A stretch of 27,815 bases of DNA from a virus. The position numbers were made by a program, and so were the translations under genes. The notes below the pieces were generated by a model. The model was given only the letters and a program-made list of their open reading frames with translations. It ran no database searches and was not told the DNA's origin. The DNA lies in IMG/VR virus record IMGVR_UViG_3300034018_000076, positions 1-27,815 of that record; one strand, written 5' to 3'. Of the stretch, positions 2,458-7,736 are shown piece by piece; position 1 is the first letter of the stretch; each line of letters starts with the position of its first letter.

Positions 2458-2958
2458 ATGGCTACTGCCTATAAAGAAGTGACTACGACTGGCCCGATTG
2501 AGTGGGCTAAGGTGTTCGAGAACAACCGTGAAATGGTTGGATATGAAGGTGTCTATGAACCTTGTGATGGGGCATACACTGTCACTCAAGTTCTCGACAA
2601 GTCAGAGTTTGATAAACTCAAGAAAGCGGGTTCGCAGAAGAAGCCTATCCAAAAACGTCTACTGGAAGGTGATGGCAAAATCGCTGTCAAGTTTGAGCGT
2701 AAGCACCTTGTCCAGAAAAGCGATGGTACGCCCATTCTGAAAGCTGGTGGTCCCCCGAAAGTGGTCAACAACGAAGGTAAGCCTTGGGATGTTGAGGTCG
2801 ATGGTCTGATTGGTAACGGAACTGTCGCAGAGGTTACCAACCTCATTACAACTTTCAAGGGTCAGGATGGTAAACCTATCAGCCGTACCTCTCTCACCAA
2901 AGTCAAGATCGTTGAGTTCCTGCCCTATACCCGTCCCAACCAAGAGGAAGCAGCATAA
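2458..2958 (+). CDS. Probable single-stranded DNA-binding protein (gp2.5-like)
   Basis: This 166-residue protein probably coats ssDNA at the phage fork and in recombination. It has the layout of phage gp2.5-like SSBs: a beta-rich body with a GLIGNGTVAEV strand-turn-strand element near residues 116-126, a following TSLTKVKIVEFLPY strand near 143-156, and a short tail with acidic residues (NQEEAA). Gp2.5-family proteins use an acidic tail to contact polymerase and helicase; the tail here is weaker than in T7. The gene follows the polymerase, behind its own promoter candidate, and precedes thyX, an order expected for an SSB. No catalytic motif is visible. The assignment rests on pattern and context, so a generic replication accessory protein remains possible. 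Confidence 0.6.
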   Translation: MATAYKEVTTTGPIEWAKVFENNREMVGYEGVYEPCDGAYTVTQVLDKSEFDKLKKAGSQKKPIQKRLLEGDGKIAVKFERKHLVQKSDGTPILKAGGPPKVVNNEGKPWDVEVDGLIGNGTVAEVTNLITTFKGQDGKPISRTSLTKVKIVEFLPYTRPNQEEAA

Positions 2959-3146
2959 TGCACTTCACATTTACTATGGTTGACAACGAAGATACCTATC
3001 GTCGTGTCACGGTTGAAGGTCAAGCAGAAACGGTTACAGAGGTTCTAGAACTGTTCCTGCCCTTTATGAAAGGTTGCACTTACTATTATGTGAACCAGAT
3101 GGTAGCTGTCTATGACGATGGCAAAGAAGTGGGTACATCAACTTGA
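2958..3146 (+). CDS. Small protein of unknown function (62 aa)
   Basis: This 62-residue soluble acidic protein starts at an ATG that overlaps the previous stop codon by one base (TAATG) and ends in a TTGA overlap with thyX. The sequence predicts a beta-alpha-beta pattern (HFTFTMVDN, an ETVTEVLELFLPFM helix, then TYYYVNQMVAVYDD). No motif or signal peptide is visible, and I recognise no family. Coupling on both sides indicates that it is translated with the SSB-thyX pair. Confidence 0.7.
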   Translation: MHFTFTMVDNEDTYRRVTVEGQAETVTEVLELFLPFMKGCTYYYVNQMVAVYDDGKEVGTST

Positions 3147-3808
3147 CAAAGATCAATGCCCGACTGATTGGACTTACTCAACCAACAATCGAGGCTCGTA
3201 TCCCTAATTCGGAAGGCATCCTAGCATACTGCGCTAGGGTGTCTAACCCCTCTAACCAAGATAACTTCGATACAGCAGAGAAACTCCTGAACTACTGTGT
3301 CAAGAACAAGCATTGGTCAGTCTTCGAAATGGTCAATGCTGTGGTCGAGGTAGAGGCTCCGAGGGATATTACCCGACAGTTGTTGCGTCACCGCTCGTTC
3401 AGCTTCCAAGAGTTTAGTCAACGCTACTCAGATGAAATCGAGTTTACTGAGCGTGAGTTCCGTAGCCAAGATACTAAGAACCGTCAGAATAGTATTGATG
3501 ACCTTGATCTTGGTATTAAGCAATACTTTGAACAGGGTGCCTCAAACCTTGTAAATCACATCGAAGAGGCATATGCTTATATGCGGGCAGAGGGTGTGGC
3601 TAAAGAGTGTGCTAGGGTTATCCTTCCCGAAGGTCTTACCATGAGCCGACTGTACGTCAATGGCACACTGCGTAGTTGGTTGCACTACCTTGATGTTCGT
3701 GATGATCCCGGTGTGACCCAGTGGGAACATGTTGTGATGGCCCGTAAGATCAAAGATGTGCTGGTCCCAGCATTTCCCACAGTCTTCAACCTGACAGGTA
3801 ATGCGTGA
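3143..3808 (+). CDS. thyX: Flavin-dependent thymidylate synthase ThyX
   Basis: ThyX methylates dUMP to dTMP using methylene-tetrahydrofolate, FAD and NADPH, supplying thymidine for phage replication. The diagnostic ThyX motif RHRxxSxxExSxRY is present as residues R82-H-R-S-F-S-F-Q-E-F-S-Q-R-Y95. The C-terminal substrate region (GTLRSWLHYLDVRD and TQWE, about 174-195) is also typical. The length of 221 residues matches the family. The start is a TTG that overlaps the upstream stop (TTGA at 3143-3146), with only a weak upstream purine-rich site, so translational coupling is likely. It ends in a GTGA overlap with the exonuclease gene. Phages of marine bacteria often carry thyX beside polymerase and RNR genes. 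Confidence 0.96.
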   Translation: MTKINARLIGLTQPTIEARIPNSEGILAYCARVSNPSNQDNFDTAEKLLNYCVKNKHWSVFEMVNAVVEVEAPRDITRQLLRHRSFSFQEFSQRYSDEIEFTEREFRSQDTKNRQNSIDDLDLGIKQYFEQGASNLVNHIEEAYAYMRAEGVAKECARVILPEGLTMSRLYVNGTLRSWLHYLDVRDDPGVTQWEHVVMARKIKDVLVPAFPTVFNLTGNA

Positions 3809-4506
3809 CAAAACATATCCTGATTGATGCAGACCCTTTTGCTTACAGGGCTGCTTTATCTAAAGACAATGACACTATTGGCGGGGTTCTTGAGAAGATT
3901 GATGAACTGTTCAAGGATAGTGTCGAAGCAGTCAAGGAGAGGTATGGAGATGACCTAACGTACAAAGCCTTCTTGACAGGCCCAAACAACTTCCGCAAGG
4001 AACTCTGTGAAAGTTACAAAGGCAACAGGAAAGCTGAGAAGCCTGTGTTGCTAAGTCTCGCCAGAGAGTACATCCTTGACAACTATATCTCTGAACTTTC
4101 AGACGGTGAAGAGGCTGATGATGCAATCGCTATACAAGCTACGAAGTTGTATCCTAATGCAGTGATTGTCTCTATCGACAAGGATTTCCGACAGGTTCCC
4201 TGTAAACTCTACAACCCAACTAGACGAGAGTGGTCAGATATTGAACAGTGGGAAGGTCTATTGTTTTTCTATCAACAACTGCTGATGGGAGACAGGGCTG
4301 ATAACATTGTTGGTGTCTGGAAGGTCGGTGAGATTACCTCTGAGAAAATCCTTAGAGGGGTTGCCACAGAACAAGAAATGTGGAAACGCTGTCTTGAGGC
4401 TTACGAAGGCGACTATGACCGTGCAGTAATGAATGGGAGACTGTTGTGGCTAAGACGTTACGAAAACCAAATGTGGGAACCTCCCAAGGAGAATGTGAAT
4501 GAATAA
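3805..4506 (+). CDS. 5'-3' exonuclease (T7 gp6 / FEN-like)
   Basis: This protein is predicted to remove RNA primers and trim 5' ends during replication and recombination. The conserved metal-binding acidic residues of the FEN/5'-3' exonuclease fold are visible: D8 and D10 (LIDADPFAY), E102-E103-A-D105-D106 (GEEADDAIA), D125-K-D127 (SIDKDFRQ) and D163/D166 (GDRADNI). The basic helical-gateway region around FRKELCESYKGNRK (63-76) also fits. Length is 233 residues, shorter than T7 gp6 (about 300). The start is GTG at 3805, overlapping the thyX stop. Neighbouring T7-type genes (polymerase, endonuclease I) support the role. Confidence 0.9.
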   Translation: MTKHILIDADPFAYRAALSKDNDTIGGVLEKIDELFKDSVEAVKERYGDDLTYKAFLTGPNNFRKELCESYKGNRKAEKPVLLSLAREYILDNYISELSDGEEADDAIAIQATKLYPNAVIVSIDKDFRQVPCKLYNPTRREWSDIEQWEGLLFFYQQLLMGDRADNIVGVWKVGEITSEKILRGVATEQEMWKRCLEAYEGDYDRAVMNGRLLWLRRYENQMWEPPKENVNE

Positions 4507-5017
4507 ATATCTAGCCTTCTTCCTTTTTGCCCTTACGATCCCTTTGGCAAATTGGTTTATTAGCAATATCGGCACCACCTGCATACCCGATGGCCCTTGT
4601 CTAATCCCTGTTGGATTTGGTCTTATGGCCCCAAGCGGTGTGCTGTTTATTGGATTGGCCCTTGTGCTGCGAGATTGGCTACAGGAGTTGACTGACTGGA
4701 AATGGTCACTTGTGGCAGTTCTTCTGGGTGGCCTCTTGTCCCTTATCACATCTTCGCCATACATTGCTGTCGCATCCGCTGTTGCTTTTGTTGTGGCGGA
4801 ACTTTTTGACCTTGGTGTTTACACACCTTTGCGTAAAAAAGGTAAACACCTCGCAGTGCTTGCTTCTGGCGTAGTGGGGTCTTTTGTTGACAGTGTGCTG
4901 TTTGTCCTCATTGCCTTTGGCTCTGTAGAACTTGCTTTTGGCACTGTGATAGCGAAAATGTATGCTAGTGTGGTTGTTGCAGCATACCTCTTCTGGAAAG
5001 GTCGAAGTAAAGTATGA
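4499..5017 (+). CDS. VUT family (YhhQ-like) queuosine-precursor transporter
   Basis: This 172-residue, strongly hydrophobic protein has about five or six membrane segments (roughly 3-22, 38-57, 70-88, 89-104, 118-140 and 147-166). The block VAELFDLGVYTPLRKK (99-114) followed by SGVVGSFVDSVLFVLIAFG (123-141) carries the conserved acidic, Tyr, Arg and Asp pattern of the VUT_1/YhhQ family. YhhQ-type proteins move 7-deazaguanine precursors such as preQ0 and preQ1 across the inner membrane. It is shorter than E. coli YhhQ (about 220 aa). Its stop overlaps the start of the DpdA-like gene (ATGA, 5014-5017), which links transport to DNA insertion of the same base. Substrate specificity is inferred from family and neighbour. 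Confidence 0.8.
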   Translation: MNKYLAFFLFALTIPLANWFISNIGTTCIPDGPCLIPVGFGLMAPSGVLFIGLALVLRDWLQELTDWKWSLVAVLLGGLLSLITSSPYIAVASAVAFVVAELFDLGVYTPLRKKGKHLAVLASGVVGSFVDSVLFVLIAFGSVELAFGTVIAKMYASVVVAAYLFWKGRSKV

Positions 5018-5706
5018 TACACTACCACGGAACCCCAATCACAAAGCGTGACCCACACCTTGAAAAGTTGCGCGGCAGGCACTTCTGCGTATCTTATGCC
5101 CACCCCTATGATGCAAAATGGTGTATTGAACATGCACAAAGCATTATGTGGGACAACGGGGCTTTCACCTCTTACACTAGAGGCAGAGAGTTCGATAAGA
5201 GTGGGTATATAGGCTGGTTAGACGACAAACTCTACGGGGCTAATTGGGCAGTTATACCTGATGTGATTGATGGTTCCGTGGAGGATCAAAGAGAGTATAT
5301 GAAAGGTTGGCCTTACCCTGTACACCTTTCTTGTGCTGTGTGGCATATGGCTTTGCCGTTGTCTTGGTTAGAAGAACTTGTCAACACTTACCCTAGAGTT
5401 GCTTTTGGCTCATCTGGTCAATACTGGAAAGTCAATTCCCCTGAGTGGCAAGATAGGTCTGACGAGGCTTGGGAGTTAATCGAAAAGACTAACACCCGAC
5501 CTTGGGTACACATGATGCGGGGGTTAAAAGTTGCTGGTAAAAGGTGGCCTTTTGCTTCGGCAGATTCCACCAACATTGCTAGGAACCACGGCAGTCATGC
5601 TATTAAAAAGTGTACGAAAGAGATGGCGGAAAGGATTGATGCAATACAGTGTCCGTTAAAACTAGAAAAACAAACCCTAAAGCCAGAGGATACCGATCAG
5701 GTCTAG
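5014..5706 (+). CDS. dpdA: DpdA-like DNA guanine transglycosylase (7-deazaguanine insertion)
   Basis: This protein is predicted to exchange guanine in DNA for a 7-deazaguanine base such as preQ0. It resembles the TIM-barrel of tRNA-guanine transglycosylase: IMWDNGAFTSY places D47 where TGT has the acid/base Asp of 'DSGGFQ', and ASADSTNIARN places D184 where TGT has its nucleophile Asp. VIPDVIDG (80-87) and VHMMRGLKV (165-173) are further barrel strands. The C-terminal zinc site of tRNA-TGT is absent, and 230 residues is much shorter than TGT (about 380), which fits the short phage DpdA group. The ATGA overlap with the transporter gene suggests co-translation, and the end overlaps endonuclease I by 58 bases. 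Which base is inserted cannot be read from sequence. Confidence 0.8.
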   Translation: MIHYHGTPITKRDPHLEKLRGRHFCVSYAHPYDAKWCIEHAQSIMWDNGAFTSYTRGREFDKSGYIGWLDDKLYGANWAVIPDVIDGSVEDQREYMKGWPYPVHLSCAVWHMALPLSWLEELVNTYPRVAFGSSGQYWKVNSPEWQDRSDEAWELIEKTNTRPWVHMMRGLKVAGKRWPFASADSTNIARNHGSHAIKKCTKEMAERIDAIQCPLKLEKQTLKPEDTDQV

Positions 5707-6047
5707 AAGACAAGGTAGCCAAGCAGTTAGAACTACAGGGTGTGAAGGTCGAGTATGAGACAACGAAGATCAAGTACGTTATCCCAGAAAGCCTTCACAC
5801 CTACACAGTCGATTTCGTGCTTCCTAACGGGATCATGGTAGAGACTAAAGGTAGGTTTGTGGCAGAGGACAGAAAGAAACATCTTCTGATCCAGAAGCAA
5901 CACCCTGAACTGGACATACGGTTTGTGTTCCAGAACTCTAAAGTCAAGATCAACAAAGGGTCTAAGACTTCCTATGCTGATTGGTGCAACAAGAATGGCT
6001 TCACATTCGCAGATAAAGAGGTGCCAGAAGAATGGTTCAAATTGTAA
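5649..6047 (+). CDS. Endonuclease I, Holliday junction resolvase (T7 gp3-like)
   Basis: This nuclease resolves branched DNA during replication and packaging, and in T7 it also degrades host DNA. The active site of T7 gp3 is reproduced at the same residue numbers: E20 (RSGLEDK), D55 (YTVDFVLP), E65 and K67 (VETKGRF), a PD-(D/E)XK nuclease. The block DRKKHLLIQKQHPELDIR (about 74-91) and the TSYADWC and FADKEVPEEW segments also match the T7 pattern. Length is 132 residues against 149 in T7. The start is a GTG at 5649, chosen because it gives the T7-like N-terminus; it lies 58 bases inside the dpdA frame. Confidence 0.96.
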   Translation: MSVKTRKTNPKARGYRSGLEDKVAKQLELQGVKVEYETTKIKYVIPESLHTYTVDFVLPNGIMVETKGRFVAEDRKKHLLIQKQHPELDIRFVFQNSKVKINKGSKTSYADWCNKNGFTFADKEVPEEWFKL

Positions 6048-7056: not shown

Positions 7057-7216
7057 AATCTTAGGGTACAGGGTCTATGTGGAAGACAAAGATTATCTGT
7101 ACTACGAAACAGAAGACACAGCTATAGCGGCTGCTAAGATGTTTGCCACAGAAAGCCGAAAGACAAAAGCAACAGTAGTTATGGAAGTAGAGGTTTATAA
7201 CAGTGGGCAAACGTGA
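7040..7216 (+). CDS. Small protein of unknown function (58 aa)
   Basis: ATG 7040 opens 58 codons that end at TGA 7214-7216. A clear GGAG sits 7 bases before the ATG, inside the end of the phosphoesterase gene. The text reads as a compact beta-alpha-beta protein: VKILGYRVYVED, then YLYYETEDTAIAAAKMF, then KATVVMEVEVYN. It overlaps the methyltransferase start by 14 bases. It fills the only gap between phosphoesterase and methyltransferase. Family unknown. Confidence 0.65.
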   Translation: MVKDVKILGYRVYVEDKDYLYYETEDTAIAAAKMFATESRKTKATVVMEVEVYNSGQT

Positions 7217-7736
7217 CAACGACAAGTTCGAGAGAAAAGGCCGTGACTTTTATGCCACAATCGACCCTGCTGCTGTAAATGCTCTGGTCGAACATCTGCC
7301 TCTACCCACAGCCTTCATCGAACCTTGTGCTGGTGCTGGTGATCTAATCAACGAACTGTGCAGGCATCACGGTGTAGTTTGTGTGGGCGCAATCGACATT
7401 GAACCACAAGCAAAGAACGTGGAACAACGAAACTGTCTTACCCTTAATTGGGTTGGACCAGAAGTAACTCACTTCATCACTAACCCACCCTTTACATGGG
7501 ACATGCTAAAGCCTATTCTAGACCACCTACCTACCCTAGCACCTACTTGGTTGTTGTTGCCTGCTGACTATATGCACAATGTACGAGTAGGCCCCTACAT
7601 GGCTAAGTGTGCTAAGGTGGTCAGTGTAGGTCGGATGTACTGGGAGAGCAACAAGAAGAAGGGTGTAGACAACTATGCGTGGTATCTCTTCACCAACAAC
7701 GAGACTGAGACAACATTCTATGGAAGAAAACCGTGA
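7203..7736 (+). CDS. Dam-like N6-adenine DNA methyltransferase
   Basis: This SAM-dependent enzyme is predicted to methylate the N6 of adenine in DNA. Motif I, the SAM-binding loop, is FIEPCAGAGDLI (39-50), preceded by the DFYATID entry typical of phage Dam-like proteins. The acidic residue after strand 2 is in AIDIEP (63-68), and the catalytic motif IV is N94-P-P-F97. Length is 177 residues, compact for the family, with no obvious large target-recognition insertion. The start is GTG at 7203 within the preceding small gene. Phage adenine methylation commonly guards against restriction. Together with the dpdA pair it suggests two kinds of DNA modification. Target sequence unknown. Confidence 0.8.
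   Translation: MGKRDNDKFERKGRDFYATIDPAAVNALVEHLPLPTAFIEPCAGAGDLINELCRHHGVVCVGAIDIEPQAKNVEQRNCLTLNWVGPEVTHFITNPPFTWDMLKPILDHLPTLAPTWLLLPADYMHNVRVGPYMAKCAKVVSVGRMYWESNKKKGVDNYAWYLFTNNETETTFYGRKP

What the first reader, a model, noticed from the sequence alone, without database searches (positions are those of the whole stretch)
4499..5706. Transporter + DpdA pair predicts 7-deazaguanine in phage DNA
Two genes joined by ATGA encode a VUT/YhhQ-type queuosine-precursor transporter and a short TGT-like protein with both catalytic Asp positions (D47, D184) but no tRNA-TGT zinc site. Established: phage DpdA enzymes insert preQ0 or related bases into DNA and protect against restriction, and some such phages carry precursor transporters. 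Inference: this phage takes up or salvages preQ0 rather than making it, since no FolE, QueD, QueE, QueC or QueF gene is in the window. The close coupling of only these two genes within a T7-type replication module would be a minimal import-and-insert modification system. The short DpdA form and the truncated (172 aa) transporter are the unusual parts.
Basis: partly seen in the sequence, partly recalled or inferred. Interest (0 to 1): 0.82.

Follow-up and report, generated by a model that had tools for sequence, protein, structure and literature searches.

The report
Phage base-importer and DNA-base-swapper cassette
A probably marine phage carries two overlapping genes, a transporter for queuosine-type bases and a small enzyme predicted to swap guanine for such a base in DNA, and this pair recurs as a travelling unit in many unrelated phages, suggesting that they import a modified base to disguise their DNA instead of making it.

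Summary
4499-5017 is a Vut_1/YhhQ-type transporter; 5014-5706 is a short DpdA-like protein; they overlap by ATGA. An AlphaFold model (pLDDT 92) matches viral queuine tRNA-ribosyltransferases, and the predicted catalytic aspartates are conserved. Corrections: the transporter is full length for its phage family, not truncated; D83 is a third invariant Asp; the window is a 27.8 kb fragment, so gene absence had to be tested in relatives (no FolE/QueD in 26, QueC in 1).

The main new evidence is linkage. The transporter lies within 1.5 kb, same strand, in 84 of 92 distinct IMG/VR DpdA loci (4 misses at contig ends). Conversely, 57 of 58 viral transporter loci, and 18 of 18 annotated phage records, have a DpdA-type gene beside them, from three DpdA families. 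In one phage lineage the pair occupies two positions and is absent from Roseobacter phage CRP-6. Bacterial hosts lacking QueC occur only with transporter-paired elements (small sample).

Best reading: an import-and-insert DNA-modification cassette. Base identity, DNA as target and protection are untested here; the one assayed relative (Pantoea phage MED16) has only 0.13% dADG and no clear restriction resistance from it. New variant of a known kind.

The parts
4499..5017 (+). VUT/YhhQ-type queuosine-precursor transporter, 172 aa, 6-7 membrane spans
   Evidence: Pfam Vut_1 1.6e-12 above cut-off; TIGR00697 queuosine precursor transporter 7.2e-10 but below its cut-off; phrog_4899 3.2e-37; hydropathy; 48-54% identity to VUT/DUF165 genes of Pam5, RHph_N3_2, RHph_X2_30, phiLM21
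5014..5706 (+). short DpdA-like DNA guanine transglycosylase (phrog_887 subfamily), 230 aa
   Evidence: phrog_887 1.6e-40; AF2 model pLDDT 92.1, pTM 0.88; viral fold matches to named queuine tRNA-ribosyltransferases at E 4e-7 to 4e-4; 33-35% identity to MED16 DpdA
5014..5017 (+). ATGA overlap: start codon of dpdA and stop codon of the transporter gene (translational coupling inferred)
   Evidence: sequence; a 4-nt overlap is the commonest arrangement (41 of 91 pairs)
5152..5154 (+). codon of D47, predicted catalytic Asp (motif WDNGAF; aligns with TDSGGF of TGT)
   Evidence: invariant in 87 of 87; local profile alignment to TGT (not significant by itself)
   Evidence: invariant in 87 of 87; aligned with APDV of the mycobacteriophage DpdA family
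5563..5565 (+). codon of D184, predicted nucleophile (motif SADST)
   Evidence: 86 of 87; aligned with SADGT of the mycobacteriophage family
3805..4506 (+). flanking 5'-3' exonuclease, upstream edge of the insertion; overlaps the transporter gene by 8 nt
   Evidence: phrog_107 4.4e-63; 46% identical to CRP-6 gp20
5649..6047 (+). flanking endonuclease I, downstream edge of the insertion; overlaps dpdA by 58 nt
   Evidence: Pfam Phage_endo_I 1.6e-62; 61% identical to CRP-6 gp21, which in CRP-6 directly follows and overlaps the exonuclease

Best explanation
The two genes form a compact import-and-insert cassette. The transporter brings a free 7-deazaguanine base (preQ0 or preQ1, whichever is available) into the infected cell, and the coupled short DpdA replaces selected guanines of the phage DNA with it by base exchange, so that the phage can modify its DNA without carrying the preQ0 synthesis genes and without depending wholly on the host's. 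Shown here: both gene assignments, the overlap, purifying selection, the near-obligate two-way linkage of this transporter family with DpdA-type genes of three families, movement of the pair as one block, and absence of synthesis genes in nearly all relatives tested. Inferred: the direction and substrate of transport, DNA as the target, and protection from restriction as the benefit.
For: Forward linkage: 84 of 92 distinct IMG/VR DpdA loci have the transporter, all on the same strand and within 1.5 kb, 41 pairs with a 4-nt overlap, in both gene orders. Reverse linkage: 57 of 58 distinct viral transporter loci have a DpdA-type gene within 1.5 kb, the exception lying at a contig end; 18 of 18 phage records with a transporter hit likewise. 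Three DpdA families are involved: phrog_887, phrog_15826, PF23859/phrog_1279. The pair sits at two different positions in one phage lineage and is missing from CRP-6. No FolE, QueD or QueF in the relatives tested, QueC in only 1 of 26. Hosts: among bacterial genomes with this dpdA, those lacking QueC all carry transporter-paired elements (3 of 7 vs 0 of 17, p=0.017; 4 of 10 vs 0 of 17 with three more genomes). Mycobacterium, a host of paired phages, has none of the preQ0 genes (PMC6884629). A DpdA relative has dADG in virion DNA (PMC8306585).
Against: No chemistry was done. The assayed relative MED16 has very little modification (0.13% of G) and no clear protection from it; Mycobacterium phage Orion, with a DpdA and no pathway, has none. 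A direct profile comparison of this subfamily with tRNA-TGTs was not significant (E 0.076-0.09), and in the PDB search TGT came only 45th among TIM barrels. Six of the ten hosts of transporter-paired elements have QueC and may make preQ0 themselves. The transporter falls below the TIGR00697 equivalog cut-off. The host of the window's phage is unknown.
Confidence: 0.74

Rival explanations
1. The short DpdA acts on RNA (host or phage tRNA or mRNA) and the transporter feeds that reaction; the cassette tunes translation during infection rather than modifying DNA.
For: The fold is shared with tRNA-TGTs, and the PHROG and fold-match names are those of tRNA enzymes. In the bacterial hosts examined a TGT gene is present, so a tRNA pathway exists there.
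Against: There is no zinc site and no room for the tRNA-TGT C-terminal region (230 aa against about 350-370 aa). A relative with this DpdA has deazaguanine in virion DNA (PMC8306585). In the window the pair lies among replication genes between an exonuclease and endonuclease I.
Confidence: 0.13
2. DpdA uses host-made preQ0 as in other DpdA-only phages, and the transporter merely boosts the pool; import is accessory and not required.
For: Six of ten bacterial hosts of paired elements have QueC. The EC151 phage carries a complete preQ0 pathway and still a transporter (PMC8310023). DpdA genes in Pseudomonas genomes lack the transporter.
Against: The near-obligate two-way linkage, its occurrence in mycobacteriophages whose host cannot make preQ0, and the absence of QueC only among hosts of paired elements.
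Confidence: 0.1
3. The transporter carries another substrate, or acts as a membrane effector (for example superinfection exclusion), and is linked to dpdA only by hitch-hiking.
For: TIGR00697 score is below its cut-off, and one transporter subtype is very divergent (about 70-90 bits against 230-260).
Against: Linkage to three separate DpdA families in many backgrounds, in two gene orders and with frequent 4-nt overlap. YhhQ, the best-known member, is the preQ0 transporter (PMC6884629).
Confidence: 0.03

Closest known systems
DpdA-only phages with occasional YhhQ (group 3 of Hutinet et al. 2019, PMC6884629)
   Same: DpdA without preQ0 synthesis genes; uptake of external precursor was suggested; some phages noted to carry YhhQ.
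   Different: That paper states no correlation of YhhQ with any phage group; here the transporter family is almost always beside a DpdA-type gene, often overlapping by 4 nt, and the pair moves as a block.
Pantoea phage vB_PagS_MED16 DpdA (DpdA/TGT_1 cluster, PMC8306585)
   Same: Homologous short DpdA (33-35% identity), no synthesis genes, dADG found in virion DNA.
   Different: No transporter within 3 kb; modification very low (0.13% of G).
Enterobacter phage EC151 / Seuratvirus deazaguanine cluster (PMC8310023)
   Same: Transporter for preQ0 plus DpdA in a phage.
   Different: Also encodes FolE, QueD, QueE and QueC; here none of those tested (FolE, QueD, QueC) is found.
Mycobacterium phage StevieRay gp53-gp54 and Arthrobacter phage Aoka gp38-gp40
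   Same: Same transporter family (phrog_4899 for StevieRay) next to a gene annotated DpdA-like tRNA-guanine transglycosylase.
   Different: DpdA of another family (phrog_15826) that aligns only weakly with the window protein (E 0.0013 in a single comparison).

Membership tests
DpdA / TGT superfamily (short phage subfamily phrog_887) | TIM-barrel fold of the TGT type | tested here: met
   Model pLDDT 92.1; viral library: 23 matches at E<=0.001, all functionally named ones are queuine/queuosine tRNA-ribosyltransferases, TMq 0.54-0.63. PDB: generic TIM barrels first, TGT 5v3c at rank 45, TMq 0.52.
DpdA / TGT superfamily (short phage subfamily phrog_887) | Two catalytic aspartates | tested here: met
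   D47 87/87, D184 86/87, plus D83 87/87. The correspondence to TGT residues rests on motif alignment only.
DpdA / TGT superfamily (short phage subfamily phrog_887) | Significant direct profile match to tRNA-TGT or to Pfam DpdA (PF23859) | tested here: inconclusive
   No such Pfam match for the window protein or its 86 relatives; hhalign to 16 host TGTs E 0.076-0.09. The published HHpred match of the MED16 relative to TGT is E 1e-9.
tRNA-guanine transglycosylase (tRNA enzyme) | Zinc site and tRNA-binding C-terminal region | tested here: not met
   No conserved cysteine cluster; 230 aa against about 350-370 aa. So it is not filed as a tRNA-TGT.
DpdA (DNA enzyme) | Inserts a 7-deazaguanine base into DNA | not testable with these tools
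   Needs LC-MS; the only relative I found assayed is MED16 (PMC8306585).
VUT/YhhQ queuosine-precursor transporters (Vut_1, COG1738) | Vut_1 domain above the curated cut-off | tested here: met
   48.4 bits vs 27.2.
VUT/YhhQ queuosine-precursor transporters (Vut_1, COG1738) | Complete set of membrane spans | tested here: met
   6-7 hydrophobic spans; length close to that of other phage members.
TIGR00697 queuosine precursor transporter (equivalog) | Score above the equivalog cut-off | tested here: not met
   39 vs 50.95 bits: superfamily member, substrate not assigned by this model.
VUT/YhhQ queuosine-precursor transporters (Vut_1, COG1738) | Transports preQ0/preQ1 | not testable with these tools
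   Needs an uptake or complementation assay.

The most novel reading that the evidence does not exclude
A widespread mobile two-gene cassette lets phages, including those of hosts that cannot make preQ0, decorate their DNA with a 7-deazaguanine base scavenged from the surroundings, so that DNA modification and any protection depend on base released by other members of the community.
Probability: 0.4. Interest if true: 0.8.

Novelty: new variant of a known kind. Interest (0 to 1): 0.62.

Why it matters
A published survey lists DpdA-only phages whose modification is hard to predict, and saw no pattern in which phages carry YhhQ (PMC6884629). A near-obligate transporter-DpdA pair gives a testable rule: such phages should carry deazaguanine DNA that depends on external base, and hosts without preQ0 synthesis should still yield modified phage when base is supplied. 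It also puts a likely function on phrog_4899 and phrog_15826 (both listed as unknown), and would be a phage DNA modification governed by a diffusible metabolite.

Tried and rejected
Direct profile comparison with tRNA-TGTs from 16 hosts: not significant (the first attempt, used a wrong reading frame for at least one TGT and is discarded). PDB sequence search with the 38-sequence profile: no match. A first AF2 model from 38 sequences (pLDDT 79.6) gave only generic TIM-barrel matches; replaced by the 87-sequence model. preQ1 riboswitch search in the window and seven related loci at gathering threshold: none. PF03883, the family given for DpdC, which would make dADG: none in 14 records. Defence-system models: no hit for the pair. 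tRNA genes in the window: none. The idea that the pair is a chance neighbour was rejected by the linkage tests. 'Bacteriophage sp.' MT837598, a transporter hit without DpdA, was set aside because its ORFs look like bacterial chromosome genes (grpE/dnaK/hemH-like; my reading of the sequences, no profile search).

Full report
What is there. The window is a 27,815 bp viral record that stands alone as its assembly. Its left part carries a T7-type replication set on the + strand: DNA polymerase, a weakly matched Gp2.5-like protein, ThyX, exonuclease, endonuclease I, then a metallophosphoesterase, a DNA-methyltransferase-like gene, MazG, ribonucleotide reductase and PhoH. Between exonuclease and endonuclease I lie the two genes in question. 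Gene 4499-5017 is a Vut_1 protein above Pfam's cut-off, below the TIGR00697 equivalog cut-off, and a member of phrog_4899, which PHROGs lists as unknown function. Gene 5014-5706 is a phrog_887 protein, 'queuine tRNA-ribosyltransferase', E 1.6e-40. They share ATGA, and both outer neighbours also overlap the pair.

Is the second gene a DpdA? Sequence profiles of Pfam and NCBIfam do not recognise it, and its alignment to tRNA-TGTs is not significant. With 87 diverse homologues, AlphaFold2 gave a confident TIM barrel (pLDDT 92.1, pTM 0.88). Against predicted viral structures all functionally named matches below E 0.001 are queuine or queuosine tRNA-ribosyltransferases, including that of Dinoroseobacter phage R5C and several actinophages. 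Against the PDB the first matches are generic TIM barrels, with TGT at rank 45, so the PDB search alone would not settle it. D47, D83, H111, G132, H166 and R169 are invariant; D184 is missing only in L112. A relative, Pantoea phage MED16 gp38 (33-35% identity), is described in the literature as DpdA, with an HHpred match to TGT at E 1e-9 and dADG in its virion DNA (PMC8306585). I therefore place the gene in a short DpdA subfamily, not among tRNA-TGTs, whose zinc site it lacks.

Is the transporter truncated? No. Other phage members are 175-177 aa and the sequence holds 6-7 hydrophobic spans.

Linkage. In IMG/VR, 84 of 92 distinct DpdA loci carry a transporter within 1.5 kb on the same strand; 4 of the 8 misses lie at contig ends, and one of the others is a divergent type. 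The commonest spacing is a 4-nt overlap (41 of the 91 pairs when 7 bacterial-genome loci are included). The transporter is upstream in 65 and downstream in 19. In reverse, 57 of 58 distinct transporter loci have a DpdA-type gene within 1.5 kb: 47 of the window's type and 10 of the mycobacteriophage type. Among annotated phages, all 18 phage records with a transporter hit have a DpdA-type neighbour: Pam5, RHph_X2_30, RHph_N3_2, phiLM21 (two records, PF23859-type DpdA), Aoka, and 12 Mycobacterium records whose DpdA-like gene directly follows. 'Distinct' here means differing DNA, not independent evolution. Independence is better shown by the three DpdA families, the two gene orders, and movement within one lineage: exonuclease-[pair]-endonuclease I in the window, L012, L015 and (endonuclease I not detected) L020; [pair] just before ribonucleotide reductase in L017, L023, L026, L027 and L029; no pair in CRP-6 (L114), where exonuclease and endonuclease I overlap directly. 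Many other carriers share no other tested window gene in the stretch held. The rule is one-sided outside this subfamily: many DpdA genes, such as those in Pseudomonas genomes and MED16, have no transporter nearby.

Where does the base come from? No FolE or QueD gene was found in the window or in 26 relatives' records, several of them 44-60 kb long, and QueC only in the record of L068; QueF was absent in the 16 viral records tested. QueE was not tested. In bacterial genomes carrying this dpdA, full-length QueC is absent in 3 of 7 with a transporter-paired element and in 0 of 17 without (p=0.017); the same 3 also lack QueD. Three further genomes from the family of G001, all paired, add one more without full-length QueC (4 of 10 vs 0 of 17, p about 0.012 by hand). 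This is post hoc, small, not corrected for phylogeny, and some genomes are incomplete MAGs. Mycobacterium, host genus of 12 paired records, has none of the preQ0 genes (PMC6884629). These facts fit import, but 6 of the 10 paired hosts have QueC.

Prior art. Hutinet et al. 2019 defined DpdA-only phages, suggested host-made or imported precursor, and noted YhhQ in some phages with no correlation to any group. EC151 and Seuratvirus phages combine a transporter with the complete pathway, and haloarchaeal viruses HCTV-1 and HCTV-16 carry YhhQ with the preQ0 pathway. I found no paper in the held library that describes the transporter-DpdA pair as a linked unit; most subscription papers and all preprints outside PMC are missing, so this is not proof of novelty.

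Verdict. I rate it a new variant of a known kind.

Noticed in passing
L012 4834-8072 against window 2458-5706: L012 has transporter 99% and DpdA 100% identical to the window, but exonuclease 70% and the Gp2.5-like protein 57%, while other genes are 85-94%: a sign of recent recombination around the cassette.
   Followed up: no
L068 (record G050): A viral record with the pair and also a QueC gene on the record's minus strand.
   Followed up: no
L002 6678-6938 and L003 5512-5757: A small protein matching phrog_9572 lies between DpdA and transporter in Pam5 and RHph_X2_30; a possible third component absent from the window.
   Followed up: partly
L006 4705-5726: Caulobacter phage DMCA has a QueD-annotated gene overlapping this type of DpdA by one base, a different solution to base supply.
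   Followed up: no
genomes G003, G004 and G008: In G004 and G008 host QueC and Vut_1 genes lie within about 1 kb of each other; in G003 a host Vut_1 gene lies beside tgt.
   Followed up: no
window 7203-7736: DNA-methyltransferase-like gene (phrog_799, 7.8e-28; PADLOC MTase_II 2e-4) that may be a second DNA-modifying function.
   Followed up: no
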